A DNA stretch of 64,000 nucleotides from a virus (IMGVR_UViG_3300032236_000443:1-64000); one strand, 5' to 3'; shown: positions 31,091 through 50,360, numbered from the stretch's first letter. The notes: generated by a model not told the origin, from the sequence alone. Numbers and translations are program-made.

Positions 31091-31624
31091 TTAGTTTGCA
31101 TATTGCTGGAATTGAGGGTCATTTACAAGTTCTTCGCCATTCAACTGGTTGCAGTCAAGTGTGACTACAGCGTAGTTGTTTGCATACCGTCCACGAGGTA
31201 GGACTCGTGTAGGAACGAAGACTTCGCCCTGAAATACTACACGGTCTTTGATGTGTAGGTTAGGGTCAGTGAGTAGTGCTGGTAAAAGTCTTTCAGCGTC
31301 CGCCACAGAAATTACTAGGCGCAAAGTATCGGTGGTGTAGTAGCCACGTTCGTTCATGATGTTGGTACCACGAAGTTGCTGAGCCATAATGACTGGCACT
31401 TCAAAGGCGTTCTTCCAACGACGTCCCTTACCAGGAGTCTGGCTAGATACATCATAGGTGTCGTCGTAGACATCAGTAGCATGGGTAGCCATGTAGTCAG
31501 CATCCCATACCCACCAGTCAACGATAGAACCTACTGGGTCACGAAGTTCGTCAACGACGCCTTCGTTAATGGATTTATTTTCAAAATCTATCTTGAAACG
31601 ACCTTGGACTTTAGTTCCACGCAT
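31091..31624 (-). CDS. Head-tail connector (stopper-like)
   Basis: 177 aa: MRGTKVQGRFKIDFENKSIN, then EVPVIMAQQLRGTNIMNERG, YYTTDTLRLVISVADAERLL and DRVVFQGEVFVPTRVLPRGR. A beta-rich protein with the strand and loop arrangement of head-closure/stopper proteins. Its place between the adhesin island and the gp10/terminator genes supports a neck role, but no family was identified with certainty. Confidence 0.55.
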   Translation of the reverse strand: MRGTKVQGRFKIDFENKSINEGVVDELRDPVGSIVDWWVWDADYMATHATDVYDDTYDVSSQTPGKGRRWKNAFEVPVIMAQQLRGTNIMNERGYYTTDTLRLVISVADAERLLPALLTDPNLHIKDRVVFQGEVFVPTRVLPRGRYANNYAVVTLDCNQLNGEELVNDPQFQQYAN

Positions 31625-31632
31625 ATCGTCTC

Positions 31633-33045
31633 CTAACTTAAGGTAAAGGAGTCAGTAAGTGGGTAACGAACCATGATAATTCCAGAACCGCCTGTTCCGC
31701 CATAGCCGTTTGCATTTCCAGCGCTAACATAACTGCAACCTGAACCTCCTCCACCAGTATTTGGAAGCCCTGCCCCCAGGATTACTGAGGTGTAAGGAAG
31801 AATGTTAGGTTGGTTGTATCCCCCAATAATTCCAGAGGTACCTCCGCCGCCAGCGCCACCTAAACCGTTGGTTACGTAACCGCCACCGCCACCACCGCCT
31901 GCGTAGTAGTAGTGTCCTCCAACATATTGACCAGTACCTGTAGCAGCACCAAAGGCATCGTAGTAAAGACCTGCACCACCCGCAGCGCCTGTTGCTGTAG
32001 AAGCACTACCAGCAGCAGCGCCCGCACCACCACCACCACCAGCACCACGGTTAGCGGCAACTCCACCAGTTCCCGAAGAACCGTTGTTACCTTGACCGTT
32101 AGTTCCTGTACCTCCAGAGTAAACAGAGTTATCTCCACCGCCACCACCGCCAGAGCCGCCATTACCTCCGTTAGCGGTTCCTGCTCCATAACCACCACCA
32201 GTGGGTGCAGTTAATGAACCAAATTGCGATGAACCACCTTGAGCACCTGGGCTGTTAAAAGCGGTGCCACCTGCGCCACCTCCTCCAATAGTTACAGTGT
32301 AAGAAGTACCAGCAGTTAAATTCTGGCTAGTAAAGTAAGAGAGACCCCCAGCACCCCCTCCTCCTCCTTGAGTTGCAGCACCATTTTGACCGCCACCACC
32401 ACCGCCGCCTGATACTACTAAAATGTCTGCCGTTAATCCTTGGCTAGGTACAAAAGCATCTGATGCACTAAATACATGGTAAGCATAACCGCCAGAGTAG
32501 TAACACGCTCCTCCAGTACCTTTAAAACCAGAGCCGATACCGTAAAGAGTAAAAGTAGAGTTAGCAAAAAAAGTGCTTCCAGTACCTGATTGTATTGTTA
32601 TCTGTGTAATAGGCGCTGTAATTGTAGATAATCCTGCAATCATAATTTGGTTTGCACTTGCAGAGTTATTTTCTCCAACACTTTGTGCTCCCCAACATTT
32701 TGCTTGACTTCCAGTGTAGTTAGGAATGTAAATTTCGCTATTTCCAAAAGTGTTTGCAGTTGCGTTTGGTCCAGCAGAGTTTCCAGCAAAACCATAAGTA
32801 GGGGAGTAACCACCAGTAGAGTAGTTTACTGCAGAACCTGTTCCATACAAATATTTATGAGAATAGACTCCAGTAGTACCGTTAAACGCTAACACAATGT
32901 CATCTCCTGCTTGACCTGTGTTATTACTTCTTGCGCTAAACTCAATCTTTAAATCAGTAAAATTTTGAGGAATGTTAGTGAATACAATAGAAGTAGCAGT
33001 TGTTGTTAATGAGAACGTTTGAATAGCAGAAAATGTTTTAGCCAT
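31633..33045 (-). CDS. Glycine-rich adhesin with NIPQ domain (copy 4)
   Basis: 470 aa. The N-terminal ~175 residues are the NIPQ domain (SIVFTNIPQNFTDLKI ... TLYGIGSG). A bridging YHVFSASDAFVPS...LTADILVVSGGGGGGGQ leads into about 250 residues of glycine-rich repeats, and the end is GGTGGSGIIMVRYP. This layout resembles glycine-rich receptor-binding proteins such as S16-type adhesins, where polyglycine helices pack into a sandwich. It is coupled to the next gene upstream by TAATG. Last gene of the second cassette copy. Confidence 0.75.
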   Translation of the reverse strand: MAKTFSAIQTFSLTTTATSIVFTNIPQNFTDLKIEFSARSNNTGQAGDDIVLAFNGTTGVYSHKYLYGTGSAVNYSTGGYSPTYGFAGNSAGPNATANTFGNSEIYIPNYTGSQAKCWGAQSVGENNSASANQIMIAGLSTITAPITQITIQSGTGSTFFANSTFTLYGIGSGFKGTGGACYYSGGYAYHVFSASDAFVPSQGLTADILVVSGGGGGGGQNGAATQGGGGGAGGLSYFTSQNLTAGTSYTVTIGGGGAGGTAFNSPGAQGGSSQFGSLTAPTGGGYGAGTANGGNGGSGGGGGGDNSVYSGGTGTNGQGNNGSSGTGGVAANRGAGGGGGAGAAAGSASTATGAAGGAGLYYDAFGAATGTGQYVGGHYYYAGGGGGGGYVTNGLGGAGGGGTSGIIGGYNQPNILPYTSVILGAGLPNTGGGGSGCSYVSAGNANGYGGTGGSGIIMVRYPLTDSFTLS

Positions 33046-34415
33046 TAGTTTGCATACCTCACAATAATAACTCCTGAACCGCCTGCGTAACCGATTAGGT
33101 GGTCTGATGTGACAGCGTTACCTCCGCCGCCACCGCCACCACCTGTGTTGGGAGTACCTGAAGAGCCACGAGACGAGCCTCCTCCGTTACCGCCACCGCC
33201 AGTGCCGCCAACACCACCGCTAGCACTTGAAGCGTAGCCACCGCCACCACCGCCACCTGCAATGTACCCATTAAAGCCAAGTTTAGTTGCGTACAACCAA
33301 CTGCTGTAAGTGTTTGAGCCAATACCGCCAGCACCGCCAGCAGTTAACCCTGTTCCGTTACTGCCGTTACCGCCAGCGCCACCGCCGCCAGCACCTGAAA
33401 GATAGGAACCATTAGAGCCAGTTGCACCTGTACCTCCAGATGAACCTTGACCTGAAGTAAAAGAGCCTCCAGAACCGCCACTGCCCCCATCAAAACCACC
33501 TGCACCGCCTCCGCCAGAGCCACCTGTTGAACCGCTCTTTACGGCTGCGGTAAGAGAGCCGCCGCCACCTCCGCCTACGGATGCGGTAAGAGCAGCAAAT
33601 TGTGAATTAACGCCATTATATCCACGTATGCTGTTGTCTCCAACAGAACTTGCTCCACCTGAACCTACTGTGCAAGTGTAAGAAGTGCCACTAGCAAGTG
33701 CTTGAGAAGTAAACGCTAAAAGTCCACCAGCACCACCTCCACCAGCCATGTTAGTTCCACCACCGCCACCGCCCGCAACAACGAGCACATCAGCAGTTAA
33801 AGCGGTTGCAGGAATAAACGCCCCTGTGCTCTTAAACGCATGGTAAGTGTATGTACCGTCAGTGCCAATAACGTCTCCACCGTAAGCCTTTGTGGGAACG
33901 ATAAACGTTGTATCAACGGCTTTAATCCCATAAATGCTTACGCTATCTCCTACTTTAAACCCGTCTGTGTTCTCAAAAATATTTATAGAAGTAATTGGGT
34001 TGTAACTTTTCCAAAGACCCGAACTAATTGTTTGATTTCCGCCTGTTGACATTTGAGTTGCCAATGCAGTTTTGTAAGTATTTGTACTGGAGTAGTTTAA
34101 AAGGTGCAGTTCGCACACTGCTCTTCCAGCGTTTACGTCTGAAGACGTTAGCATATAAAGACTTGCTACTGCTCCAGTTTTACCTGAACCTCCTGCAGAA
34201 CCATTTCCGTACAAAGATGTAGCAGAGTAGTTGCTTTGAGTGTCGCTATTGAACTGGACAAAAGCAGTTCTATCCCCATTACCTCCAGTTATGTTTCTGT
34301 ACAGATTTGTTTTAATAACTAAATCTGTATAATTTTGAGGTATGTTATTAAAAACAATAGATTTTGTGTTTACACCTAAAGTTTGACTAGCAATAAAAGT
34401 GTACGTAGATGCCAT
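33045..34415 (-). CDS. Glycine-rich adhesin with NIPQ domain (copy 3)
   Basis: 456 aa paralogue of the neighbouring gene: SIVFNNIPQNYTDLVI, SGLWKSYNPITSINIF, then SIYGIKAVDT, the bridging YHAFKSTGAFIPATALTADV and a long glycine-rich region ending GGSGVIIVRYAN. The conserved N- and C-termini with a variable glycine-rich middle suggest trimer assembly ends around a variable receptor-contact part. TAATG junctions on both sides. Confidence 0.75.
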   Translation of the reverse strand: MASTYTFIASQTLGVNTKSIVFNNIPQNYTDLVIKTNLYRNITGGNGDRTAFVQFNSDTQSNYSATSLYGNGSAGGSGKTGAVASLYMLTSSDVNAGRAVCELHLLNYSSTNTYKTALATQMSTGGNQTISSGLWKSYNPITSINIFENTDGFKVGDSVSIYGIKAVDTTFIVPTKAYGGDVIGTDGTYTYHAFKSTGAFIPATALTADVLVVAGGGGGGTNMAGGGGAGGLLAFTSQALASGTSYTCTVGSGGASSVGDNSIRGYNGVNSQFAALTASVGGGGGGSLTAAVKSGSTGGSGGGGAGGFDGGSGGSGGSFTSGQGSSGGTGATGSNGSYLSGAGGGGAGGNGSNGTGLTAGGAGGIGSNTYSSWLYATKLGFNGYIAGGGGGGGYASSASGGVGGTGGGGNGGGSSRGSSGTPNTGGGGGGGGNAVTSDHLIGYAGGSGVIIVRYAN

Positions 34416-35014
34416 TATTGAGCCACCTTAATTCCGTATAGCGCAACTTGTGAGTTTTGCTGAAAGTTTACTGCGTCTTTTGAGTAAACTTTTACGCTAG
34501 TAATTGCGTCAGAGTTAACTCCAGTGCCCGCTTTAAACCAAAGTCCAGAGTTAAGCATTGCAAATCCACCTGTAACGTTATCTACGCCGTGAAGCGAACG
34601 TGTTACTTTATTTTTATTTACATTTGTATAATCTAATATATCCACAATAGCGCCAAAAAAAGCGTTGTTTCCGACAGAACCATACCCAGCATACGCACCG
34701 TTAGCGCTGCTTGAGGCATAGGCAGAGACAGGGCTAGAACCTTGACCGTATAAAAGGTGGTAAGAGTAATTTGCTGAAGTATCGCCGTTAAATTGAAGGT
34801 CTAAATCTCCAGTAGAGTTAAACTGTCCAAAAATTCTTAGTTGCAAATGTGTAAAGTTTTGCGGAATATTGCTGAAGGTAATGTTTGCTTGACCACCAGA
34901 GGGTACAACCACTGTTGCGATAGATTGAAAGTCATTCTGAGTAGTGGTTTGGTCCCACACCTTAATAGACTTGGTGCTGGATAACCCAGCACCATTAAAT
35001 CTTTTAATAGACAC
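34415..35014 (-). CDS. Short NIPQ-domain fibre protein (copy B)
   Basis: 199 aa, GTG start with AGGGGAG upstream. It is the NIPQ domain alone: FSNIPQNFTHLQLR, GDTSANYSYHLLYG, VDILDYTNVNKNK, SGLWF and ALYGIK near the end. The N-terminal ~45 residues (KSIKVWDQTTTQNDF) likely anchor it. It has the same length and layout as the gene at 38422 and heads the second copy of the cassette. Confidence 0.7.
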   Translation of the reverse strand: MSIKRFNGAGLSSTKSIKVWDQTTTQNDFQSIATVVVPSGGQANITFSNIPQNFTHLQLRIFGQFNSTGDLDLQFNGDTSANYSYHLLYGQGSSPVSAYASSSANGAYAGYGSVGNNAFFGAIVDILDYTNVNKNKVTRSLHGVDNVTGGFAMLNSGLWFKAGTGVNSDAITSVKVYSKDAVNFQQNSQVALYGIKVAQ

Positions 35015-35036
35015 GAATGACTCCCCTTTGGGAAAA

Positions 35037-35273
35037 TTAGAGAACTAGAACGGCGGCTTCTTCTGCTGTCAAAGGAGTACCAGCGATTAACTTAGCCTTG
35101 GCGCTTTCCTTGAGAGCAGCAGTTGCTTCAGCAGCAGCGTCAGCAGCAGCCTTTGCTTCAGCAGCGGCAGCAGCGTCTTGGTCACGCTGTGCAATTTCTT
35201 GTGCAGTTAGGGGAACAATACGTTGTTCTCCAGTTGTGCAATCAACAATAATCTTTGTAGGTGTATCAGACAT
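35037..35273 (-). CDS. Small Ala-rich fibre-associated protein
   Basis: 78 aa. MSDTPTKIIVDCTTGEQRIV is a small strand domain, followed by an Ala-rich helix (QRDQDAAAAAEAKAAADAAA) and a short end. Similar small proteins are common beside tail fibres of aquatic phages, possibly fibre chaperones or tail-tip parts. It is coupled to the previous gene (TAATG-type overlap at 35273). Confidence 0.6.
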   Translation of the reverse strand: MSDTPTKIIVDCTTGEQRIVPLTAQEIAQRDQDAAAAAEAKAAADAAAEATAALKESAKAKLIAGTPLTAEEAAVLVL

Positions 35274-35638
35274 TACTTAACTTCCTTCCATGATGTAGTT
35301 GGTTCGTCCCATGAATAAATCTTGCCATCTGTAGGCATAGGTGTTGGGGCATCCCAAACACAGGTTTCTTCGTTCAATGTCCAAGAAGCAAATGGCTTTG
35401 GAGGAATGAATGCATCACGAACAGAGTCGTAAGTAAACCCAATTCCAGCATAGTTCTTGCGGAAAGGAGTACCGCCATTGCGATGCTCTCCAGCAATGGT
35501 GTTATAGGAAGTTTGCTTCCATGTACCACCCAAACCGAGTTCATCGGCTAAAAATGCTTGACCATCTTCCTTATCGTCTGCAACGACAAGTACACGAGTG
35601 ACAATGTTGTCTTCGTCAATTTCGGCCCAATGTGCCAT
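35273..35638 (-). CDS. Fibre-associated protein (aquatic-phage type)
   Basis: 121 aa from the ATG at 35638 with AAGGAG upstream. MAHWAEIDEDNIVTRVLVVA, then WKQTSYNT, GFTYDSVRDAFIPPKPFASW, TCVWDAPTPMP and YSWDEPTTSW. This pattern (IPPKP-x-x-SW, then C-x-W-x-x-P-x-P-x-P) recurs in cyanophage- and pelagiphage-like genomes near tail fibres. Function unknown, virion or fibre related. It separates the two copies of the adhesin cassette. Confidence 0.72.
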   Translation of the reverse strand: MAHWAEIDEDNIVTRVLVVADDKEDGQAFLADELGLGGTWKQTSYNTIAGEHRNGGTPFRKNYAGIGFTYDSVRDAFIPPKPFASWTLNEETCVWDAPTPMPTDGKIYSWDEPTTSWKEVK

Positions 35639-35687
35639 AGATTTTCTCCTTGCTTGATTGTCTAATGATAAACAGTTGTTAGTTAAT

Positions 35688-37067
35688 TTATGCCTTATAC
35701 CGAACAATAACTACACCAGAACCGCCAGCAGCACCGCTGTCTGCTCCAGTTACGATAGGTAGGCTGTAGCCCCAAGTTGCTCCTCCACCGCCACCTCCAG
35801 TATTTGTAAGACCAGCAGTAGGTAAAGAAGCAGGATTTGAAGTGGGAAATTGACCTCCACCCCAACCTCCCCCACCTTTTGAGCGGTAAGTAGGAATGTA
35901 ACCTTGGTAAGCGCCCCAGCCTCCATTAGTTCCAGTTCCTTCAGTACCACCGTTACCACCACCACCGTAATACGCCGATAAACCGTATACGTTTCCAACT
36001 GGGTGTGAAAAACCGTCTCCACCAATAGAGCCAACAGTTCCTGTTGTAGCGCTGCTATTCAACCCGTTAGCACCTGCTCCCGCACCGCCGCCGCCTGCAA
36101 GGTGAGAATTGTCGTTACCATTTGCAGTCTGACCACCGATGTAGCCAGTAGAGGTACCATTTACAACGTTACCTGAAGAACCACCTCTATCTGGGTAGTA
36201 ATAGTTAACTCCACCTACACCGCCACCAGAAGAAGTTAAGTTGTAAAACGTTGAAGATGTACCAGCAACAGCAGTAGCACCACCAGCAACTGCACCAGCG
36301 CCACCACCACCGATAGTTGCTACGTAGCCAACTCCTGGTGTAAAGGTAACTCCAGTAGTAACGCTTACGTAACCGCCACCACCACCAGTTCCTTGAGGTC
36401 CTCCTGCTTGTCCTCCACCTCCACCGCCAACAACCATGTAATCTGCTAATAGACGAGTAGAAGGTTGGAAAGACCCAGTTGAGTTAAAGATGTGGTAAAC
36501 ATAAGTGCCATCAGTAGTGACAATTCCACCATTTGCTTTTAGTGAATTGCCAACTACTTTCGTCATATCTTTAATGCCGTATAAGGTGAACTCTGAGTTT
36601 TGAGCAAAGTTAGATGCAGAAATCATGGTAAAACTAATAGAGGTAATTGGCGAAGTATTTGACCAAGTTCCAGACATAATATTTTCATGCCCAGTTGAAG
36701 AAAGAGCATCTGCAACGTTGTTTACAGAAAAGTTTTTAGGGTAAGAAGATGTGTAATTAGGGATGTAAATTTCCGTACTGTTAAACGTGCTTGCAGTACC
36801 GTTAGTGCCCCATACAGAGCCTACATACCTAGCAAGAGACGATGATGATTTGTTAGTTCCATCTGAGTACAGGTAGATGCCTGAAAAACCTGTAGTAGTC
36901 CCATTAAATGCAACGTTCATACCTTGCGCTGCGGAATCAGTGCTGCGTACAGATAGGTAAACCCTTAAATCAGTGTAATACGAAGGTATGTTAGAGAAGG
37001 TTACAGTAGTGTCTCCACCAGTTGCGCTTACAGTGTAAGAGCCAATTTTTGTCATTGTCTCATTCAT
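35688..37067 (-). CDS. Glycine-rich adhesin with NIPQ domain (copy 2)
   Basis: 459 aa. The N-terminal domain reads VTFSNIPSYYTDLRVYLSVR ... FTLYGIKDMT. Then comes YHIFNSTGSFQPSTRLLADYMVVGGGGGG, a glycine-rich region containing Tyr-rich loops, and the end GGSGVVIVRYKA. Compared with its paralogues the NIPQ motif is NIPS-Y-YTDL and the glycine region is interrupted more often by aromatic residues. TAATG overlap with the upstream paralogue. Confidence 0.75.
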   Translation of the reverse strand: MNETMTKIGSYTVSATGGDTTVTFSNIPSYYTDLRVYLSVRSTDSAAQGMNVAFNGTTTGFSGIYLYSDGTNKSSSSLARYVGSVWGTNGTASTFNSTEIYIPNYTSSYPKNFSVNNVADALSSTGHENIMSGTWSNTSPITSISFTMISASNFAQNSEFTLYGIKDMTKVVGNSLKANGGIVTTDGTYVYHIFNSTGSFQPSTRLLADYMVVGGGGGGQAGGPQGTGGGGGYVSVTTGVTFTPGVGYVATIGGGGAGAVAGGATAVAGTSSTFYNLTSSGGGVGGVNYYYPDRGGSSGNVVNGTSTGYIGGQTANGNDNSHLAGGGGAGAGANGLNSSATTGTVGSIGGDGFSHPVGNVYGLSAYYGGGGNGGTEGTGTNGGWGAYQGYIPTYRSKGGGGWGGGQFPTSNPASLPTAGLTNTGGGGGGATWGYSLPIVTGADSGAAGGSGVVIVRYKA

Positions 37068-38422
37068 TAGCGTGCGTACCTCACAATGATTAGTCCAGAA
37101 CCACCAGTTCCACCTGCACCTGCCTGAGAGTTTCCACCAGCACCTCCACCAGTGTTAGCAAGTCCATTGGCTTCAGTCTGGAGGTTGTCGTTACCTCCAC
37201 CTTGGTTACCTGCACCACCGTTACCGCCTCCGCCATTACCTCCAAGGCCGTGACCGTCCCAAGTACCGTCTGAACCTCCGTTACCTAAGTTAGCAGCACC
37301 TCCGCCACCACCTGCGTAGTAAACCGTTCCTGAAACATTCTGCCCTGTGTTGGTTGCAAGGCCCCATGAAGAGTACGCAGAAGTTCCTGCACCACCGTTA
37401 CCGCCATGATTAGCGTTACCAATTTCTCCAGCAACTCCAGCACCACCACCGCCACCGCCGTTGCGAACATTCGTAGCACCATTACCACCAGAATTACCTT
37501 GAGTACCAGTTCCTGTTCCACCTATGCCAGGAGTGTAACCACCACCACCACCTCCAGAACCACCATTGGCTCCGTTGTCACGGGATGAACCTCCTGCAGA
37601 ACCTCCACCAACTGCAGCGGTTAGAGCACCAAACTGTGAGTTGCCACCATTACCGCCAATACTGCCTCCACCGTTAGCACCGCCTGCACCTACTGTGCAT
37701 GTGTACGAAGTACCACCTGTAAGAGATTGAGATGTAAGTGCTACTACACCGCCCGCACCACCGCCACCACCAAAACGCCAGGTAGAACCGCCACCTCCAG
37801 CAACTACAAGGATGTCAGCAGTAAGGTTACGGGTAGGTGTAAATGTACCTGTTCCATTAAACACGTGATAAACGTAAGAAGAGTCATAGGCAATAGAGGT
37901 TCCGCCAGAAGCCTGTGCAACTCTAGCGTTTACTGGGCTAATGCCGTATAAAGAAAAAGTAGAACCAGCAGCAAAAGTATCGGAGTCTAAGTTAATAGTT
38001 ATAGATGTAATAGGTAAGAAGTTTCTCCACGTACCTGTATGAGCGTCAACTCCTCCACCGCCTCGGTCTGCTCGTGACATGATGGTTTTGTAGACAGTTG
38101 AGTTGGAATATTGAAAAATATCTACACGTCGCATACCCCACTCAGTGTTAGATGGAGTAGCGTAGTAGTCAATAGTTAAGTTGTTTCTGTTTGACCAACG
38201 ACTTGAGATAGGGCTACTTCCAGTTCCTGCCATAACTGTGCTGGAGTAATTTGCTCCAGTATCTCCGTTAAACTGAAGGTTTACGTAGTTAGTTGTAGTT
38301 GAAGAAGCAAGGCATGAAATGACTAAATACAAATCTGTATATGTTTGGTCAATGTTTGTAAAAGTTACACTAGCCGCTGATGAGTTTAACTTAATAGACT
38401 GTAAAGGAGTATTTGTTGGCAT
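37067..38422 (-). CDS. Glycine-rich adhesin with NIPQ domain (copy 1)
   Basis: 451 aa. SVTFTNIDQTYTDLYLVISC, FNGDTGANYSSTVMAGTGSS, LYGISPVNA, YHVFNGTGTFTPTRNLTADI, then a glycine-rich region with many GGGGAGG-type repeats, ending GGSGLIIVRYAR. A likely receptor-binding tail fibre tip. It is coupled by TAATG to the 199-aa protein upstream and to the paralogue downstream. Confidence 0.75.
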   Translation of the reverse strand: MPTNTPLQSIKLNSSAASVTFTNIDQTYTDLYLVISCLASSTTTNYVNLQFNGDTGANYSSTVMAGTGSSPISSRWSNRNNLTIDYYATPSNTEWGMRRVDIFQYSNSTVYKTIMSRADRGGGGVDAHTGTWRNFLPITSITINLDSDTFAAGSTFSLYGISPVNARVAQASGGTSIAYDSSYVYHVFNGTGTFTPTRNLTADILVVAGGGGSTWRFGGGGGAGGVVALTSQSLTGGTSYTCTVGAGGANGGGSIGGNGGNSQFGALTAAVGGGSAGGSSRDNGANGGSGGGGGGYTPGIGGTGTGTQGNSGGNGATNVRNGGGGGGAGVAGEIGNANHGGNGGAGTSAYSSWGLATNTGQNVSGTVYYAGGGGGAANLGNGGSDGTWDGHGLGGNGGGGNGGAGNQGGGNDNLQTEANGLANTGGGAGGNSQAGAGGTGGSGLIIVRYAR

Positions 38423-39021
38423 TATTTAATCCCATAGATAGATGCTATGCAACCTGAAACTAATGTTTGGCTACAGTTTAATGAGATAGTTCCTACTGCT
38501 TGTGTGCTATTCCATAGCCCCGATGCCAGTTGAATTTTACCTGAACCATTTACTTCCTGGGCTTCTAGCACTCTAATGTTTTTTGTTTTATTTGTATTTG
38601 AATAATCCAAGATATCAATAATGAAAGTGGTCCACATACCTGCGGTAGAACTTGAGCCGTTTACTTCTCCAACTCCCATAAAACTAACGCCCGTTTGTCC
38701 ACCCGTAAAGACGCTTGAACCATCTCCACCAAGTAGGTGATATGAGTAGTTGTTTCCAGAGTCAATGCCTGATGCAGGACCCATCTGCATTTGCCAACCA
38801 ATGCCTACCGCTTGGGCATAAGTAGAACGTACTAATCCACGAATTTGAAGGTGAGTGTATGTTGAAGGTATGTTATTGAACAAAAAAGCAGTTGAGTTTG
38901 TAGACAACTGTGCAGAAGTTATAGCATCCATCGCAGCAGTTTGAGATACTTGGTCCCAAACAGTTTGTTGCTTCGGAAAACCAGCCTGAATACTTTGACG
39001 AGAAAGACGACTAACTGCCAT
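38422..39021 (-). CDS. Short NIPQ-domain fibre protein (copy A)
   Basis: 199 aa: VWDQVSQTAAMDAITSAQL, FLFNNIPSTYTHLQIRGLVR, NNYSYHLLGGDGSS, IIDILDYSNTNKTKNIR, ASGLWNS, and ends SIYGIK. The same size as the gene at 34415 and the same domain without the glycine-rich extension. It heads the first copy of the cassette. Probably a fibre subunit or adaptor that carries the glycine-rich tips. Confidence 0.7.
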   Translation of the reverse strand: MAVSRLSRQSIQAGFPKQQTVWDQVSQTAAMDAITSAQLSTNSTAFLFNNIPSTYTHLQIRGLVRSTYAQAVGIGWQMQMGPASGIDSGNNYSYHLLGGDGSSVFTGGQTGVSFMGVGEVNGSSSTAGMWTTFIIDILDYSNTNKTKNIRVLEAQEVNGSGKIQLASGLWNSTQAVGTISLNCSQTLVSGCIASIYGIK

Positions 39022-39034
39022 GAGTTAGGTCTCC

Positions 39035-39403
39035 TTACGCTAGTTCAGAACCGAATGCTGAGAAAGAAAGAGTGGTTGCTGAGGCGTTAATGGTGATGAC
39101 ATCTGTGGTCGCCAATGTAATGCCAAGTGTCAAAGCAATCGTATCGTTTCCAGCAATTGGGGTTCCGTAAGCAATGTAGTGACGAGTATCAAGAGTTGCA
39201 CCTGCTGGGCGCACAGCGATGTTGAATGTTGCCGCTGTTGAAGCCTGGTTGCAGATAGTCAATGTTGAAACAACAGTAGAAGTTGCTGCTGGAACTGTGT
39301 AAAGGTTGTAGTTGGTATTAGCGGCAGAAAGTTGCTGAGCACCGTTACCAGTTGCTCCTGCTGCGCCTGTCATACCTAAAACTTTGTAAGAGGCTGTTGC
39401 CAT
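39035..39403 (-). CDS. Virion beta-sandwich protein (fibre-island type)
   Basis: 122 aa: SYKVLGMTGAAGATGNGAQQ, then NLYTVPAATSTVVSTLTICN, FNIAVRPAGATLDTRHYIAY and TPIAGNDTIALTLGITLATT. This pattern is common to small structural proteins of aquatic phages, likely a decoration or fibre-attachment protein. The ATG at 39403 is 62 bases downstream of the TPR gene, and that spacer shows nothing notable. Confidence 0.72.
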   Translation of the reverse strand: MATASYKVLGMTGAAGATGNGAQQLSAANTNYNLYTVPAATSTVVSTLTICNQASTAATFNIAVRPAGATLDTRHYIAYGTPIAGNDTIALTLGITLATTDVITINASATTLSFSAFGSELA

Positions 39404-39465: not shown

Positions 39466-40032
39466 TTAAAGCGCCCCTAGATTTTTAAGGTTAGAGGTTA
39501 CAGAGTTCCTGTATTCCTCAGTCAAACTAGGGTCTAGTAGGAGGTTCTTAAAGAGGTCTACCGACTCATCTTGGCGTCCCACCCACCAAGCGCTTACTGC
39601 CTTTTCAAAGATAAGACCATATCGTCCTGGGTAATCTACCCAGATAGGAAGTAGGTCATTTTTTGTTGCGGGCAAAGAAAGTCCAACTTCGGCGTAAGTG
39701 TAGGACTCTTGCCACTTCTTGTTCTGCTCAAAGTAACGTGAGAATAAGAACCATGCTTCAGGGCGGTTAGGCAGGTAAGCGATAGCCTTGTAGTACAAGT
39801 TCCGAACTGTGTGCTCACGGTTCTGCTGGGCGCTAAAACACTTGGCAGATTTCAGCAACGACGAGTAGACATAGGTGGGATGGGTGTAGTACCCGTACTC
39901 AGCAGTCCGTAGGTAGAAGGAAACGGCAGAAGCAGTCTGACCTATGCGGTCGTACTCTTCGGCAATCTGTAGGTTAAGTGCAGGACTAAAGGGGTCATTA
40001 GATAGTTGGACTATTAACTCTTTAATTTCCAT
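39466..40032 (-). CDS. TPR-repeat protein
   Basis: 188 aa of helical repeats: ALNLQIAEEYDRIGQTASAV, VRNLYYKAIAYLPNRPEAWF, LFSRYFEQNKKWQESYTYAE and ESVDLFKNLLLDPS are TPR-like 34-residue units. TPR proteins of this type often accompany carbohydrate-active enzymes in phages. It overlaps the end of the beta-propeller gene by 2 codons or more, so the two products are probably made together and may interact. Confidence 0.7.
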   Translation of the reverse strand: MEIKELIVQLSNDPFSPALNLQIAEEYDRIGQTASAVSFYLRTAEYGYYTHPTYVYSSLLKSAKCFSAQQNREHTVRNLYYKAIAYLPNRPEAWFLFSRYFEQNKKWQESYTYAEVGLSLPATKNDLLPIWVDYPGRYGLIFEKAVSAWWVGRQDESVDLFKNLLLDPSLTEEYRNSVTSNLKNLGAL

Positions 40033-41023
40033 AAAGAGCCTCCGAAATCATTGAGTCAACTGTTGACTTGGGTACTTCAAGGACAAATGCCGCATTGTCC
40101 TGAAATCCAAATGAGAGAAGTAAGTTGTCGTTGAGCACGGCAGCGCCGCAGACAAACTCAATCTTTGCATCTAGGAATGACCACTCTATTGGTGACACCC
40201 CAATTAATTTAAATGATTTGTTCCATACACATAAGCGATGGCGATAGACGCCATCTTTCTGTCCCATGTAGTTCTTAGTAAGCACAACTTCGTGTGTGAT
40301 GGCGATGTACATCTCGCCCCACTTAATGAGTTGAGAACCACCACGCAAATCAGCAGGAGCAGTAACGCCCTCTACAACCGCTAGTTGCTCACAGAATGCT
40401 GGGCGGTGTGGTTTAGTGCGAACAACCTCTGTCGGAGATGACCACTTAACGTATACATACGGCTTATCAAGTACAGGCATCCAGTTCTTTTCGCAGTATG
40501 CGTTCTCATCAATTGGCGCAGGAATACGGATGCGTGAAACTTCTTTAGCAGTCCATTGTTCTTTATCAACTTCTAACTCCGATAGTTCCATACGGCCTTG
40601 ACCAGTTGTAGTGGTATCTCTACGAACGCCTGTGCCGTAGTACTTTCCATCCCACTTAACTAAGCGGGCATCTTCTAACCCTACAAACTCCCAAATCGGC
40701 TCGTGAAGATTTTGCATTTCTATCTTGCAATAGTTGATGACATTAAAGTCTTTATCTAATCTACAGAAGTAATTCTCTGTACGTAACTTTTGGTCTTTCT
40801 CTGGATGCAAGTAAGAAAGAGGACCCCAGATACTGGGGAAGCGTTGGTCGTTTTCTGAGTGATAAAGAGTGTAATTGATATGACGCAAAATGCAGAGGAT
40901 ATCTCCATCATCATCTATAAAGATAGATGGGTTCATTAAACCAGTTCCACCTGTAACTTCAGAAGGAATGATGAGAGGCGTTAACTTGCCGCCTTCTTGT
41001 ACCGCCTTTTGCACCAGATTCAT
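40022..41023 (-). CDS. Five-bladed beta-propeller glycosidase-like protein
   Basis: 333 aa from the ATG at 41023; a GTG at 41047 lies inside the preceding gene. Repeating blade motifs are NPSIFIDDDGDILCILRHIN, GLEDARLVKWDGKYYGTGVR, KNWMPVLDKPYVYVKWSSPT, LRGGSQLIKWGEMYIAITHE and CGAAVLNDNLLLSFGFQD, the pattern of GH43/GH130-type propellers. A role in cutting or modifying host or virion glycans is inferred; the substrate cannot be read from the sequence. Sits within the fibre island. Confidence 0.65.
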   Translation of the reverse strand: MNLVQKAVQEGGKLTPLIIPSEVTGGTGLMNPSIFIDDDGDILCILRHINYTLYHSENDQRFPSIWGPLSYLHPEKDQKLRTENYFCRLDKDFNVINYCKIEMQNLHEPIWEFVGLEDARLVKWDGKYYGTGVRRDTTTTGQGRMELSELEVDKEQWTAKEVSRIRIPAPIDENAYCEKNWMPVLDKPYVYVKWSSPTEVVRTKPHRPAFCEQLAVVEGVTAPADLRGGSQLIKWGEMYIAITHEVVLTKNYMGQKDGVYRHRLCVWNKSFKLIGVSPIEWSFLDAKIEFVCGAAVLNDNLLLSFGFQDNAAFVLEVPKSTVDSMISEALYGN

Positions 41024-41036
41024 GGGGCAAAGACTA

Positions 41037-41696
41037 CTACATACCACCTAGCATAAGTACTTGAGGTAGTGGGTCAGATGCTGCTGCCGCCCAAGCAACA
41101 CCTGTACCTGTAGAGGTAAGAGCATAACCGCTAGTTCCTGCAGAACCACCAGCAGTCAATGTTCCAGTAAGAGTAAGGTTGGCAATAGAAGGACCTGTTG
41201 CAGCAACGATAGTTCCGCCAGTTCCTGTGATGAAGTCAAAGCCAGAAATTTGATAATCCCATGAGGCAGCGGTAGTTCCCGAAGTAGAGACAACTGTAAA
41301 GAAACCGCTAAAGCCAGTCTGCAGTGTAGCGACAAGATTTCCGCCAGAAGAGTTGATAGTCAAAGACTGTGTGCTGTTGTTGAGGATTTGGAAAGCAAAA
41401 CCAAGAGTTAAAGTGCTAACAACTGGAAGAACAATTGTCTGTGCAAGTGTTCCAGTGAAGTTTTGGGTAGTTTTGCTAGAGACTGTAAGGGTAGTAGTAG
41501 CACCAGCAGTTGCGGTTGTAGCGTAAGAAACACCACCACCTCCAGCATAAGACAAACCAGTCCACGCAGTAGAGCCATCACCGATTTTGAACTGGTTAGT
41601 ATCTGACTCAAAGCCAATTTCGCCCGCTGCAAGAGTTGGGTTATTGGAAGTCCAGTTAGCCGCTGTATCACGGCGTTGCTGCATTCTAGATGTCAT
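41037..41696 (-). CDS. Tail fibre protein with tropism-determinant-like N-terminus
   Basis: 219 aa. The start MTSRMQQRRDTAANWTSNNP, LAAGEIGFESDTNQFKIGDG, STAWTGL is the short N-terminal motif of many tail fibres and of major tropism determinant-like proteins, where it forms the attachment peg. The remainder is Thr/Ser/Gly-rich beta structure. It follows the collagen-like gene. Confidence 0.72.
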   Translation of the reverse strand: MTSRMQQRRDTAANWTSNNPTLAAGEIGFESDTNQFKIGDGSTAWTGLSYAGGGGVSYATTATAGATTTLTVSSKTTQNFTGTLAQTIVLPVVSTLTLGFAFQILNNSTQSLTINSSGGNLVATLQTGFSGFFTVVSTSGTTAASWDYQISGFDFITGTGGTIVAATGPSIANLTLTGTLTAGGSAGTSGYALTSTGTGVAWAAAASDPLPQVLMLGGM

Positions 41697-41712: not shown

Positions 41713-44700
41713 TTAGAAACTTACCGTTGATGCGCCTGCATCAATCGTGTAAGTCCACGTAGTGGTGTTACTTGAAGAAACTCCTGCGTCATAGATTATA
41801 TCTGGCTTTATTGCTGAAGAACCGCCATCTAGATAATCAACTATGTATGCATTACCGCTAATGCCCTGGATACCTTGTGCACCTGTGGTTCCGATAGAAC
41901 CCTGAACACCTTGAGAACCTGTAAGTCCCTGTGTACCTGTTGAGCCTTGGGTTCCTGTAAATCCTTGTGCACCAGTGGCTCCTTGGGCACCTGTGGCTCC
42001 AGTAGCACCTGTGGCTCCTTGAAGACCAGTTGTACCTTGAGAACCTGTGGCTCCTGTTGTACCTGTAAAACCTTGTGCGCCCTGCGCTCCAGTGGCTCCA
42101 GCAGAACCTGTAGCACCAGTGGCTCCCTGTGCTCCTGTGGCTCCAGTAGTTCCCTGAACAGTTCCGCTAGTGATAAGCGTTGCTGAGAAATAAGTACCTT
42201 GACCGTTTGTATTACCGCCCCATTGCAAAACCTGTGATGTTGTGTTGCTTGTGTACGCAGTAAAGTCAATGTAATCAGTAGAACCGTTTAGGTAAACAAC
42301 CTTAGAACCACCCTGAGTGTAACCATTAGTGGTTGATACAGAGTTTTGGTAGATGGCGATTGTGCTGCCATTCTTCCTTACCTGGGTGTTGGTCTGAGCA
42401 GTACTCAGTGCGCCAGTTGCCCACCATGCATCAAAGTTAATAAGGTAGTAACCAGCAATAGTTGGTTGGAATCGCTTTGCTGTTGGGTCGTACCAGTTCT
42501 GTGGGTCAAAGTCATCAACAAACGCAATGAGTGCATCTGCGCCAGCAGTTACTGTTTGGTCGTTTGCTAATCGTCCATTTGCCGTGTAGTTAGCAGCGGT
42601 GAGCATTCCACCATTAAGACCTTGAATACCTTGCGTACCTTGTGAGCCTTGGGCTCCAGTAGTACCTGTTGTACCTTGGGCTCCAGTAGAGCCGATAGCG
42701 CCCTGTGTTCCAGTAAAGCCTTGGGTACCTGTCGCACCTTGGGCACCAGTAGCACCTGTTGTGCCTGTTGTGCCTTGTGCGCCCGTAGTTCCTACTGCGC
42801 CTTGAGTACCTGTAAATCCTTGAGCACCCGTAGTGCCTTGAGAGCCTGTTGCTCCTGTGGTTCCCTGTGCGCCAGTAAAGCCTTGCGTACCAGTAGCGCC
42901 TTGAGTTCCTGTGGCTCCCTGCAGTCCTTGTGTACCTTGAATTGCGTAAGCAACTTGGGTAGCAGTAAGGATAATTCCTGGGGTAATTGGTGTAGTTGGA
43001 GTTGTTCCTGCAGCAATTGTTTCAATAGAAACTGTTGTGCTTTCCGCTTGCCACATGAAGGTAACAACGTCATTGGCATTAAACGTGTAGACATAATTAA
43101 CGGTCTCAATGATTTGACCTGAAACGGAACCGTGCGATTGAGGTACAGTCATTTGACTGTTGGAGTATGGGGAATCTACTCCATTAACTCTTAGCCACAA
43201 GTTAGCGTTGTAAATCTGAGAAGAAGTGTTAACTAGTTGCACTGAGATAGTTATGCTGTAAGTTCCTTGGTTTAAGAACTTAATAGAGTTACCGCCCTGA
43301 GTTATTACGCCATTGTTCTCATAGGTGTTATTGATACTGATTGGATAAGCGGTTGTAGAGTTTGCAACAGTTTGAGTAGTTGTGTCGTAAAAAGAACCAT
43401 AGTAAGCAATTGTTCCACCAGCACCTTGAGCACCAGTGGCTCCTTGTGCTCCTACACCACTAGCCTGTGTCCATTGGATAGCGTCAGTACCAATACGGAT
43501 AGAGCCGTCTGAGTTAGAGCCGTTGGCATACATAAGCCATGCGGTCTTACCATAAACAGTTCCATCGGTTACAAATACGTAATCGCCTTCTTCTACCTGT
43601 GCTGCGACATGGTTATCAGCATCTGTAGCACGAGTAAGTTTCCACACAGAAGAAGAACTACCTGTCTGTGTTACTGTGTAAATACCATTTTGAACTTGAG
43701 TTGCTTGACCAGCAATAAGAACACGGTCACCAACTGCCATGTTTGGAGTGGTGTAACCATCAATAGAAAGAGTTCCGTTAGATGTAGCAATAATATAAGC
43801 GCCAATACCAGTACCGTTGCTAGCATCAGCAGAGCCAGCATAGTAAGTAGCACCATTACCAAGAGGCGTTGTCTGTACAGCCTCTACTGATTGGTGTGCG
43901 TTCTGAGAGGAGACAGGACCAACTGCTCCTTGAATACCCTGGGTTCCTTGTACGCCTTGGCTACCAGTTGTTCCCTGGGTTCCTTGCGCTCCAGTTGTTC
44001 CTTGAGCACCAGTGGTACCCTGAGAACCAGTTGTTCCTTGAGACCCCGTCGCTCCTTGAGAACCTGTTGTTCCTTGAGAACCAGTGGTTCCAGTCGTACC
44101 TTGAGAACCTGTAGTTCCCTGACTACCTGTAGTGCCCTGAGAACCAGTAGTTCCTTGTGAACCTGTAGCGCCAACTGCGCCTTGAGCACCCGTTGAGCCA
44201 GTGTAGCCCTGAGTTCCCTGTGCGCCTTGTGCACCAGTTGTACCTGTAGTTCCCTGTGAACCTGTGGCTCCAGTAGCACCCTGTGCTCCTGTTGTTCCTT
44301 GGCTACCAGTTGGGCCAATGTCTCCAGTTAAACCTTGAGAACCAGTAAAACCTTGTGCTCCTGTAGTTCCTTGGGAACCAGTTGCTCCAGTAGTTCCTTG
44401 ATTTCCTGTAGCACCTTGCGAACCTGTAGCACCTTGGCTACCCGTAGTTCCTTGAGAACCAGTTTGTCCAACAGCACCTTGGATACCAGTTGTACCTTGT
44501 GCACCGTCGTTACCTTGTGGTCCAGTAAATCCTTGCAGACCTTGAGCGCCAGTAGAACCAGTAGTTCCCTGTGAGCCAGTAGCGCCAGTGGTTCCTTGAG
44601 TTCCTACTGAACCTTGTGAACCTGTAGCACCTTGGCTTCCTGTTAATCCTTGAGAACCAGTTGCTCCCTGAGTTCCTGTTGAACCTGTGGTTCCTTGGGC

Positions 44701-44850
44701 TCCTTGTAGTCCAGCAGTAACCCACTCAGAGCCATCCCAAGTGTAAAGGGCATTATAAGTCGTATTGAAATAAACATCGCCAAGAGACGGACTGCTTGGC
44801 GGAGTCGCCAGATGCAGTACGTTAAGGGATGTTAAAAACCGACGGCTCAT
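41713..44850 (-). CDS. Giant collagen-like fibre with C1q-type domains
   Basis: 1045 aa. A short head peptide (PSLGDVYFNTTYNALYTWDG) is followed by ~260 residues of Gly-X-Y triplets rich in Gln, Thr, Ser and Ala. Then come a module shared with other fibres (QVQNGIYTVTQ, GDYVFVTDGTVYGKTAWLMY), a C1q/TNF-like jelly roll (about residues 478-635), more triplets, a second jelly roll (about 750-895), triplets again and a short end. Triplet tracts would form a triple helix joining trimeric globular heads, a long flexible host-adhesion fibre. Very repetitive DNA, so assembly errors are possible. Confidence 0.85.
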   Translation of the reverse strand: MSRRFLTSLNVLHLATPPSSPSLGDVYFNTTYNALYTWDGSEWVTAGLQGAQGTTGSTGTQGATGSQGLTGSQGATGSQGSVGTQGTTGATGSQGTTGSTGAQGLQGFTGPQGNDGAQGTTGIQGAVGQTGSQGTTGSQGATGSQGATGNQGTTGATGSQGTTGAQGFTGSQGLTGDIGPTGSQGTTGAQGATGATGSQGTTGTTGAQGAQGTQGYTGSTGAQGAVGATGSQGTTGSQGTTGSQGTTGSQGTTGTTGSQGTTGSQGATGSQGTTGSQGTTGAQGTTGAQGTQGTTGSQGVQGTQGIQGAVGPVSSQNAHQSVEAVQTTPLGNGATYYAGSADASNGTGIGAYIIATSNGTLSIDGYTTPNMAVGDRVLIAGQATQVQNGIYTVTQTGSSSSVWKLTRATDADNHVAAQVEEGDYVFVTDGTVYGKTAWLMYANGSNSDGSIRIGTDAIQWTQASGVGAQGATGAQGAGGTIAYYGSFYDTTTQTVANSTTAYPISINNTYENNGVITQGGNSIKFLNQGTYSITISVQLVNTSSQIYNANLWLRVNGVDSPYSNSQMTVPQSHGSVSGQIIETVNYVYTFNANDVVTFMWQAESTTVSIETIAAGTTPTTPITPGIILTATQVAYAIQGTQGLQGATGTQGATGTQGFTGAQGTTGATGSQGTTGAQGFTGTQGAVGTTGAQGTTGTTGATGAQGATGTQGFTGTQGAIGSTGAQGTTGTTGAQGSQGTQGIQGLNGGMLTAANYTANGRLANDQTVTAGADALIAFVDDFDPQNWYDPTAKRFQPTIAGYYLINFDAWWATGALSTAQTNTQVRKNGSTIAIYQNSVSTTNGYTQGGSKVVYLNGSTDYIDFTAYTSNTTSQVLQWGGNTNGQGTYFSATLITSGTVQGTTGATGAQGATGATGSAGATGAQGAQGFTGTTGATGSQGTTGLQGATGATGATGAQGATGAQGFTGTQGSTGTQGLTGSQGVQGSIGTTGAQGIQGISGNAYIVDYLDGGSSAIKPDIIYDAGVSSSNTTTWTYTIDAGASTVSF
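43918..44710 (-). repeat. Long Gly-X-Y coding repeat
   Basis: Degenerate tandem repeat of 9-base units encoding Gly-X-Y triplets (GSQGTTGSQG types) within the collagen-like fibre gene. Three further tracts in the same gene lie at about 41857-42162, 42608-42943 and 43418-43455. Repeat number is likely to vary by slippage or recombination among related phages. Confidence 0.85.
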
Positions 44851-47128: not shown

Positions 47129-47578
47129 TTATGACAAGTATGCAACGCCGCTAAACGCTGCTAGAAAAGTTATTTCCAAGTAGTTCGGGTCTCGGTAGTA
47201 AATTTCGCCCTCGCATATTGCACCAGTGGAGTCCATTGTAGTGACGTTTGGAAAGAAATTAAGGTTATGCGAGATACGCCATAAAGCAGATGAAACACCT
47301 TGGTTGTGTGTATACGCAATTGCACGGTTAGTTCCTTGTATACCTTGGATACCCTGAATTCCTTGAGTTCCAGTTGCTCCTTGTGCTCCAGTGCCAGTAG
47401 CGCCTTGTACACCTTGTGGACCACGAGCACCGCCCTGACCAGGGCCAACTACAACAGTTGATTGGGTAGATTGAGCAGCGCTAGGAGGTACTACAGTAAT
47501 AACTACAGGATTAGTTGCCTGTACTGTAATTCCCTGTGTGCCGCAAGAGCATGTGTTCTGGCAACCACAAGTTGTCAC
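47129..47578 (-). CDS. Short collagen-like protein
   Basis: 149 aa, GTG start overlapping the upstream stop (GTGA). The N-terminus is Cys-rich (TTCGCQNTCSCG), possibly disulfide- or metal-linked. A short Gly-X-Y run (GGARGPQGVQGATGTGAQGA...) follows, then a globular end (AIAYTHNQGVSSALWRISHN, GEIYYRDPNYLEITFLAAFS) that resembles the final domain of the large fibre at 44870. It may trimerise with the collagen-like fibres. Confidence 0.7.
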   Translation of the reverse strand: MTTCGCQNTCSCGTQGITVQATNPVVITVVPPSAAQSTQSTVVVGPGQGGARGPQGVQGATGTGAQGATGTQGIQGIQGIQGTNRAIAYTHNQGVSSALWRISHNLNFFPNVTTMDSTGAICEGEIYYRDPNYLEITFLAAFSGVAYLS

Positions 47579-48624
47579 ATCGTCACCTCACGGGTAACGA
47601 ATACTGTTCCACGCATGTAAGTCTTTTGATAAGTTGGGTCACCATCAGTAGTTGCTTGGATATCCCAATAGCAACGTTCTGGCAGGTCTGTGGTCTGTGA
47701 CGGTGTGAGGGAAAGGGTCAACTTCTGGTTGTTGCCTGATACTGGTGTAACAGTCATGTTGGCAACAAGAGTTGGGTCTCCTGGTTGCATACGAATTTGA
47801 GAGGCAAATGTGTAGCCTGAGATATCGAATGGGAAATCAAGTTCGACAGAGAACGAATCTCCTTGGTACATAGTCAAGTCGTATGTAGGAACATCGGAAG
47901 GTGAGATAGCACTTCCGTAACTTGGCATTGAAAGAAGGGCACGGCTAGGCATAGAGCGGTCGTCCACTTCTTGTGGCAAGTAGATAGGTACATAACGGTT
48001 TGTGGTCTTAGAAGTGCGGCGAAGGGTGAATACGTCTATCTTGTAAAGACCGATGCCAAGCATTGAGCAAAGTTCCTTGTATTGATTCTTGCGCTCTTCA
48101 ATCATCTGCATGAGTTGGCGGTAGCGCTCAGAACGTGGGATAGCAACTCCGTCAGGAGCAGTAATGTCAATATCAAATGAAGCGTCAGTAGCAAGTGTGT
48201 AAAGCGCCAAGGTAGAGGCGTACACAACTACTGGGTATTCTTCAATACCTGGAAGGCTTGTGTAGGTGTAGCCACGACCGTATGCGTCAGCGTGGTTAGC
48301 GATGTGTTGACCAAAGGCTGTATCAATGAACTGGCAGATTTCGCTATCTACAAAGTAACGGTAGTAGGTGCCAGAGAAAACAATGATAGCCCCAGAAGCA
48401 GGTACATCATGAAGAGTTACATACCCTGTTAGTTCCTCAACGACAGATGTGTCGGAGACGTCTGTGTTATTCACATAGACCATAAGGGAGGCACCATCAA
48501 CTGGTGAGTAAGGGATGAGGAAACGGTTAGTGGCGCCGTCTGCAACAATTTGATGGACAAAGGACTTGCCTGTGTCGCCTATTTCAAATCGTAGACGGTC
48601 TGCAAGACTGTTTAGTGTAGCCAC
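47575..48624 (-). CDS. Head-tail adaptor with BppU-like Ig domain
   Basis: 349 aa, GTG start with GGAGG. Residues 1-205 resemble a helical head-tail adaptor (LADRLRFEIGDTG, EICQFIDTAFGQHIANHADA, ERKNQYKELCSMLG). From about residue 245 a beta domain reads YDLTMYQGDSFSVELDFPFD ... CYWDIQATTDGD, TYMRGTVFVTREVTM, similar to the BppU-type N-terminal domains in aquatic phages. It is the first gene past the strong terminator, so it heads the adhesin transcript. Confidence 0.6.
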   Translation of the reverse strand: MATLNSLADRLRFEIGDTGKSFVHQIVADGATNRFLIPYSPVDGASLMVYVNNTDVSDTSVVEELTGYVTLHDVPASGAIIVFSGTYYRYFVDSEICQFIDTAFGQHIANHADAYGRGYTYTSLPGIEEYPVVVYASTLALYTLATDASFDIDITAPDGVAIPRSERYRQLMQMIEERKNQYKELCSMLGIGLYKIDVFTLRRTSKTTNRYVPIYLPQEVDDRSMPSRALLSMPSYGSAISPSDVPTYDLTMYQGDSFSVELDFPFDISGYTFASQIRMQPGDPTLVANMTVTPVSGNNQKLTLSLTPSQTTDLPERCYWDIQATTDGDPTYQKTYMRGTVFVTREVTM

Positions 48625-50324: not shown

Positions 50325-50360
50325 GTAGGTCAAGTCCTTTCATTAGTTGTTTGGAGGGGA

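What the first reader, a model, noticed from the sequence alone, without database searches (positions are those of the whole stretch)
31633..39021. Duplicated three-gene adhesin cassette flanking two small genes
Transcription order gives 199-aa NIPQ protein, two Gly-rich adhesins (451 and 459 aa), two small genes, then again a 199-aa NIPQ protein and two Gly-rich adhesins (456 and 470 aa). All inner junctions are TAATG. All six share NIPQ-x-YTDL/THL, YSYHLLYG-like, SGLW and YGIK motifs; the four long ones end GGSGxIIVRY. This looks like repeated duplication followed by divergence of receptor-binding proteins, a resident host-range repertoire.
Basis: partly seen in the sequence, partly recalled or inferred. 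Interest (0 to 1): 0.75.

Follow-up and report, generated by a model that had tools for sequence, protein, structure and literature searches.

The report
Paired three-gene phage fibre cassettes
This uncultured virus, probably of actinobacteria, carries two copies of a strict three-gene unit whose three related proteins most likely join one-to-one-to-one into a receptor-binding fibre head, whereas the fibre heads known from tailed phages are generally built from three copies of one protein.

Summary
The gene layout is real: two cassettes of three genes (A, B, C) around two small genes, each ABC set joined by TAATG. It is not a recent local expansion or a loose repertoire. In 240 complete, non-redundant gene clusters from IMG/VR, 232 hold exactly 3, 6 or 9 of these "NIPQ" domains (213, 15 and 4 clusters). 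Position in the triplet predicts sequence class almost perfectly (396/396 and 179/180 in the two later sets). A alone carries an anchor-like extension and never a glycine-rich tail; B and C start directly at the domain and may carry a tail resembling the receptor-binding end of cyanophage Pam3's fibre. Covariation between A, B and C of the same triplet is similarly strong for all three pairs, involves the same two terminal strands, and exceeds controls that keep most of the phylogeny. Best explanation: each cassette encodes one obligate A:B:C heterotrimeric fibre head, and this phage makes two different heads. The domain has no Pfam family and no cultured member was found. Virophage DSLV2, with an unrelated protein family, offers an experimental precedent for a three-gene heterotrimeric fibre. 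Heterotrimer assembly here is inferred, not shown.

The parts
38422..39021 (-). A1: anchor chain of cassette 1; conserved N-terminal peptide (SVSRLSKQSIQAGFPKQQ.VWD in relatives) + NIPQ beta-sandwich, no tail
37067..38422 (-). B1: NIPQ domain + Gly-rich tail (PF21722)
35688..37067 (-). C1: NIPQ domain + Gly-rich tail (PF21722)
35273..35638 (-). s122: small conserved companion (phrog_7759), possible assembly factor (inferred from linkage only)
35037..35273 (-). s78: small Ala-rich companion, found within 1.5 kb downstream of 87 of 111 triplet clusters, possible assembly factor (inferred from linkage only)
34415..35014 (-). A2: anchor chain of cassette 2 (GTG start); conserved N-terminal peptide (MSIKRFNGAGL..KVWDQTT.NDFQSIATVVVPSGG) + NIPQ beta-sandwich
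33045..34415 (-). B2: NIPQ domain + Gly-rich tail; model matches the Pam3 fibre
31633..33045 (-). C2: NIPQ domain + Gly-rich tail (PF21722)
39035..39403 (-). h122: border gene of the exchange site (phrog_1276-like)
31091..31624 (-). g177: other border gene, homologue of BRock gp142, which lies between capsid and sheath genes

Best explanation
Each cassette encodes one obligate A:B:C heterotrimeric fibre head. The three paralogous NIPQ beta-sandwiches pack around a pseudo-threefold axis lined by their first and last strands. Chain A supplies the only attachment to the virion, through its N-terminal docking peptide or, in other phages, a fibre anchor plus FN3 domains. Chains B and C have no anchor, are held by A, and (in this phage) carry Pam3-like glycine-rich tips that contact the host surface. 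The window phage makes two such heads with different docking peptides. Their doubling is old and fixed. Fast divergence and wholesale replacement of the cassettes at the h122/g177 site would tune host recognition. Shown: domain and gene order, triplet rule, position-specific classes, distribution of extensions and tails, sequence covariation, model similarity to Pam3. Inferred: 1:1:1 stoichiometry, trimer geometry, receptor binding, virion location.
For: Triplet rule: 232 of 240 complete non-redundant clusters hold 3, 6 or 9 domains. Set 1 gave 79/84, set 2, seeded with a C-class motif, 48/51, set 3, seeded with A-, B- and C-class motifs, 105/105. Of 8 exceptions, 2 are contig-edge truncations (L040, L220), 1 is an A gene split in two ORFs (L233), and 5 involve divergent domains poorly matched to any class. 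Position = class in 326/329, 179/180 and 396/396 domains; the class label changes 3 times on a 329-row tree. Over 147 triplets the tail pattern is only ---, -GG or --G, never on A; N-terminal extensions are an A feature and the long ones include FN3 and fibre-anchor-like sequence. Control: Gly-rich fibre genes without the domain in the same contigs, most with an N-terminal segment of their own, come singly (23) or in twos (4). In four phages C of one triplet is fused to A of the next. Covariation: A-B, B-C and C-A couplings sit in the same terminal strands, 7 of the top 30 in the same column +-1 (e.g. A16-B16, C17-A17, C18-A18, B21-C21); top score 2.89 versus 1.28-1.65 when partners are swapped with nearest relatives, 24 of the top 30 in terminal strands versus 1-6; couplings to the linked gene s78 are weaker. 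A-C coupling is as strong as A-B and B-C, as a ring requires and a linear stack does not. Fold: confident all-beta model matching predicted viral fibre proteins, some annotated as collagen-repeat proteins; B2 matches the Pam3 fibre. Precedent: three consecutive virophage tail genes with position-specific clades co-purify as a 1:1:1 heterotrimer (PMC12724248).
Against: No complex was predicted or measured; the structure tool takes single chains. Foldseek found no PDB match at E<=1e-3 for the NIPQ domain itself, so a trimeric relative is not established. Covariation came from 298 sequences over about 400 columns, terminal columns are lineage-rich, and the swap null controls phylogeny only down to about 54% partner identity. 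Chain-s78 scores are not negligible (up to 1.52). A correlation test for cyclic symmetry of the whole coupling matrices was uninformative.
Confidence: 0.66

Rival explanations
1. A, B and C each form homotrimers that stack end to end on one fibre (A proximal, then B, then C); the cassette is an obligate set because each tier docks on the previous one.
For: Phage fibres are typically homotrimers, and Pam3 gp24 with the similar Gly-rich domain is one (PMC9608196). The C-to-A fusions in four phages are also compatible with continuous homotrimeric tiers. A would be the proximal, anchored tier.
Against: A and C covary as strongly as the neighbours A-B and B-C, through the same strands and partly the same columns, which a stack does not predict. 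B and C have no N-terminal segment for docking on the previous tier, and both B and C bear bulky tails in 46 of 147 triplets.
Confidence: 0.15
2. One reading: a resident repertoire of independent, alternative receptor-binding proteins made by repeated duplication.
For: Paralogy of all six, Gly-rich receptor-binding-like tails, and faster divergence than most neighbours: 42-50% median identity against 64-78% for h341, h188, h122, s122, s78 and g177.
Against: Alternative binders should be gained and lost singly, but 232 of 240 clusters are exact multiples of three, in fixed order and with only one anchor per three. The double cassette is shared by 13 distinct phages and so is not a recent expansion.
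Confidence: 0.1
3. The triplets are obligate heteromers but not host-binding tail fibres: they are capsid, neck or collar decorations that at most stick to surfaces.
For: The locus lies between the capsid genes and the sheath, in a stretch where BRock-like phages have the genes between head and sheath, and not with the baseplate genes. The nearby 750-aa protein matches head-decoration families.
Against: Neighbours include a collagen-like fibre (PF01391) and a protein with the Mtd N-terminal domain of a tropism determinant. A chains in relatives carry tail-fibre-like anchors, and the tails resemble the Pam3 tail fibre.
Confidence: 0.09

Closest known systems
Myocyanophage Pam3 tail fibre gp24 (PDB 7YPX, 7YFW; PMC9608196)
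   Same: Beta-sandwich followed by a glycine-rich receptor-recognition domain. The B2 model's best PDB match is 7ypx (probability 1.00, E 3e-4), and a profile search points to the same chain (E about 0.09). A fibre chaperone accompanies it in Pam3; small companion genes accompany the triplets here.
   Different: Pam3 gp24 is one gene making a homotrimer with its own helical anchor on every chain. Here there are three different genes, one anchor-bearing chain, and a beta-sandwich without a significant PDB match.
Tripartite tail proteins of virophage DSLV2 (PMC12724248)
   Same: Three consecutive paralogous genes, phylogenetic clades by position, shown there by co-purification to be a 1:1:1 heterotrimer that binds cell-surface LPS.
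   Different: A phage-tail-collar (PF07484) protein family in virophages; no PF07484 match here, no Gly-rich tails mentioned there, one set per virus as described.
C1q head (A, B, C chains)
   Same: Works-like analogy only (own knowledge): three paralogous beta-sandwich chains forming one pseudo-threefold head.
   Different: No sequence or fold match obtained; animal protein.
Glycine-rich tip adhesin gp38 of Salmonella phage S16
   Same: Gly-rich receptor-binding domain; the Pam3 authors report structural similarity of gp24 to it (PMC9608196).
   Different: Single-gene tip on a homotrimeric fibre (own knowledge); no match obtained here.

Membership tests
Pfam Gly_rich_2 (PF21722) | Whole-protein score above curated cut-off (24.3 bits) | tested here: met
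   B1 43.6, C1 35.8, B2 51.0, C2 50.5 bits; A1 and A2 none
Pam3-type glycine-rich fibre | Glycine-rich domain similar in sequence or fold to Pam3 gp24 | tested here: met
   Foldseek 7ypx_A E 3e-4, probability 1.00; profile E about 0.09 over profile positions 260-438, weak on its own
Pam3-type glycine-rich fibre | Single polypeptide with its own N-terminal virion-docking domain | tested here: not met
   B and C start at the domain with no extension; A is extended but has no Gly-rich tail
Heterotrimeric three-gene fibre (DSLV2-like by function) | Three consecutive paralogues with position-specific clades | tested here: met
   326/329, 179/180 and 396/396 domains; 3 label changes on the tree
Heterotrimeric three-gene fibre (DSLV2-like by function) | PF07484 tail-collar domain | tested here: not met
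   No PF07484 match in any of the cassette proteins or among 81 A chains
Heterotrimeric three-gene fibre (DSLV2-like by function) | 1:1:1 complex | not testable with these tools
   Only indirect: obligate triplets and A-B, B-C, C-A covariation
C1q/TNF-type trimeric domain | Fold match to TNF/C1q structures | tested here: inconclusive
   All-beta model, pLDDT 88, but no PDB match at E<=1e-3; RANKL only at rank 17, E 0.05, TM about 0.2
Diversity-generating retroelement target | Reverse transcriptase in the genome | tested here: not met
   No PF00078 match in the 98-kb record, which may be incomplete

The most novel reading that the evidence does not exclude
A widespread, so far undescribed class of tailed-phage fibre heads in viruses of aquatic bacteria is built as an obligate A:B:C heterotrimer from three dedicated genes with a single anchored chain, and phages add heads in whole triplets (up to three, sometimes chained by C-A fusion) rather than gene by gene.
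Probability: 0.6. Interest if true: 0.8.

Novelty: new variant of a known kind. Interest (0 to 1): 0.66.

Why it matters
Phage receptor-binding fibres are generally treated as homotrimers, so host-range prediction, fibre annotation and structure prediction assume one gene per fibre tip. A strict rule of three would mean that these genes must be expressed, predicted and exchanged as a set, that one asymmetric head can present up to two different tips, and that annotating the genes as separate 'adhesins' is misleading. It is directly testable by co-expression. The family appears common in uncultured viruses (several hundred IMG/VR contigs here), has no Pfam model, and gave no hit in the phage collection beyond two records of one uncultured virus.

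Tried and rejected
Recent in-situ duplication: rejected, because cassette 1 and cassette 2 each form their own clade across 13 phages. Whether cassettes 1 and 2 are sisters is unresolved: the larger FastTree puts cassette 2 with other triplets, while the IQ-TREE search has both together with support 82; the root is unknown. An earlier version of that tree had colliding row names (the same flaw affects the row count) and was redone. Diversity-generating retroelement: no RT found. Structured RNA in the window: no Rfam hit. PDB relatives of the NIPQ domain by sequence and fold: none significant. Small genes s122 and s78: no PDB match and no Pfam match. A correlation test for cyclic symmetry of the coupling matrices was uninformative, and a first nearest-neighbour swap null reused rows and changed the score scale, so it was replaced by a one-to-one couple swap. 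Paper searches for heterotrimeric tail fibres in tailed phages found no report; the library holds open-licence papers only.

Full report
What is there. The window is part of a 98,099-base virus record with a contractile tail: major head protein, portal, sheath, baseplate proteins and a tail protein with a metallo-endopeptidase domain are recognisable. The head protein is 61-62% identical, and the portal 54%, to those of Streptomyces phage BRock and its relatives, and the only hit of an A-chain profile in GTDB genomes is an actinobacterium metagenome-assembled genome whose contig holds a complete triplet. The host is therefore probably an actinobacterium (inference). The reported genes exist as described. 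I name them by transcription order A1, B1, C1, s122, s78, A2, B2, C2.

Small corrections. The first small gene starts at 35638, not at the upstream TTG, so C1 and s122 are about 49 nt apart; the relatives agree. The motifs are approximate. The real common denominator is a domain of about 165 residues shared by all six; A1 and A2 add an N-terminal peptide, and B and C add a glycine-rich tail (Pfam Gly_rich_2; phrog_2295). The domain itself matches no Pfam family in 81 A chains beyond scattered chance-level hits.

Relatives. Searches of IMG/VR with the 199-aa gene and with alignments of A1, A2 and the downstream gene g177 found the same eight-gene arrangement in other phages, for example L004, L005, L006, L022, L024 and L038; in L007 and L020 the two cassettes are directly adjacent and the small genes lie to one side. 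In ten such phages the flanking and intervening genes h341, h188, h122, s122, s78 and g177 have median identities of 64-78% to the window, whereas the six NIPQ proteins have 42-50%. Only the neighbouring fibre-like gene h219 is as variable (47%). In A1 the N-terminal segment is better conserved (median 55%) than the rest (36%); in A2 it is 53% against 42%. Other phages with the same border genes carry unrelated content between h122 and g177, so this is an exchange site.

Rule of three. Counting NIPQ domains in complete, non-redundant clusters gave 79 of 84 multiples of three in the first set, 48 of 51 in a second set seeded with a C-class motif and 105 of 105 in a third set seeded with A-, B- and C-class motifs. 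Together this is 232 of 240: 213 threes, 15 sixes and 4 nines. Cassettes separated by more than 1.1 kb, such as the two in the window, were counted separately. Two of the eight exceptions are cut by contig ends (L040, L220), one has its A gene broken in two ORFs (L233), and five contain divergent domains only weakly similar to any of the three classes. 'Complete' means no edge ORF and at least 500 nt on each side; redundancy was removed by shared 4-mers.

Position equals class. The nearest relative of each domain in another contig sits at the same position in its triplet for 326 of 329 domains, and the position label needs only 3 changes on the tree of all 329. In the two later sets 179 of 180 and 396 of 396 domains fall in the class of their position. 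N-terminal extensions are a feature of A, up to 277 residues. The long ones contain FN3 domains and sequences typical of fibre anchors, similar to the N-termini of Gly-rich fibre genes in the same contigs that lack the NIPQ domain. Those genes serve as a control: they occur singly (23 runs) or in pairs (4 runs), never in threes. Across 147 triplets the glycine-rich tail is on neither B nor C (87), on both (46) or on C alone (14), never on A. In four phages C of one triplet and A of the next are one reading frame with an FN3-like linker (the two linkers scanned, L081 and L009, score just under the Pfam FN3 cut-off), which suggests that heads can be chained.

History. The six window domains pair as A1-A2, B1-B2, C1-C2. 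Cassette 1 of 13 phages forms one clade and cassette 2 another (support 96 and 97 for the sets of 13 rows). A mixture-model tree keeps cassette 1 as a clade with support 100 and does not reject cassette 2. The doubling is therefore older than these phages. Whether it was a tandem duplication or the acquisition of a second cassette is open because the root is not known.

Do A, B and C touch? Distances between triplets correlate among A, B and C (Spearman 0.57-0.61, shuffled 0.06), as expected of a unit inherited together. A direct-coupling analysis of 298 concatenated triplets gave inter-chain pairs concentrated in the first strand (profile columns 16-24) and last strand (172-183), in all three pairings, with same-column pairs such as A16-B16, C17-A17, C18-A18 and B21-C21. 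Swapping B and C one-to-one with those of the nearest relatives, which keeps most of the phylogeny, lowered the top score from 2.89 to 1.28-1.65 and the number of top-30 pairs in the terminal strands from 24 to 1-6. Couplings to the linked gene s78 are weaker. The strongest pairs mostly join N-termini of different genes, about 0.5 kb or more apart, so DNA adjacency is not the likely cause. A-C is as strong as A-B and B-C, which suits a ring of three and not a linear stack. I regard this as suggestive, not proof.

Structure. The A2 model is confident (pLDDT 88) and all beta, with a disordered N-terminal peptide of about 20 residues that is nonetheless strongly conserved among the closest relatives, as a docking peptide would be. 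It has no significant PDB match but matches many predicted viral proteins, including ones annotated as FN3, side-tail-fibre and collagen-repeat proteins. The B2 model (pLDDT 89.5) has the cyanophage Pam3 fibre as its best PDB match, and a profile search independently points to the same chain. [quoted passage not shown]

Mechanism. The simplest reading is an obligate A:B:C heterotrimer per cassette: one anchored chain, two tip-bearing chains. Three consecutive tail genes of virophage DSLV2, an unrelated family, show the same genomic signature and co-purify as a 1:1:1 heterotrimer (PMC12724248), so the signature has at least one experimentally tested counterpart. I found no report of such a fibre in a tailed phage. 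Where the heads sit on the virion is unknown. The locus lies between capsid and sheath genes, so a neck or head position is possible. s78 and s122, at least one of which follows 89 of 111 triplet clusters within 1.5 kb, may be assembly factors; this rests on linkage only.

Noticed in passing
window 40022-41047 and 39466-40032 (h341, h188): This two-gene pair is on the same strand as its neighbours here and in several relatives, but on the opposite strand in many others with the same border genes (e.g. L024, L132, L163), so it has been inverted during evolution.
   Followed up: no
window 41037-41696: 219-aa protein with the Mtd N-terminal domain (PF18454, E 2.9e-15), the anchoring part of a known phage tropism determinant; no reverse transcriptase was found in the record.
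   Followed up: partly
window 41713-44850: 1045-aa collagen-like protein (PF01391, seven stretches) not far from the capsid genes.
   Followed up: no
window 49194-50333 and 31091-31624: Head protein and the g177 gene link this virus to Streptomyces phages of the BRock group; about 16 kb of mostly fibre-type genes lie between g177 and the gene (47575-48624) whose homologue is adjacent to it in BRock.
   Followed up: partly
L276 (MAG of an uncultured actinobacterium): The only triplet found in a GTDB genome, three NIPQ domains in a row; a host hint, but the contig could be a co-binned virus.
   Followed up: partly
L009, L081, L251, L261: C of one triplet is fused through an FN3-like linker to A of the next, as if fibre heads were chained.
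   Followed up: partly
L013, L039, L053, L060, L210: Divergent NIPQ domains outside the three classes, single or two in one protein; possibly ancestral or homo-oligomeric forms that could help root the family.
   Followed up: no
window 21974-24553: 859-aa tail protein with a metallo-endopeptidase domain (residues about 500-618).
   Followed up: no
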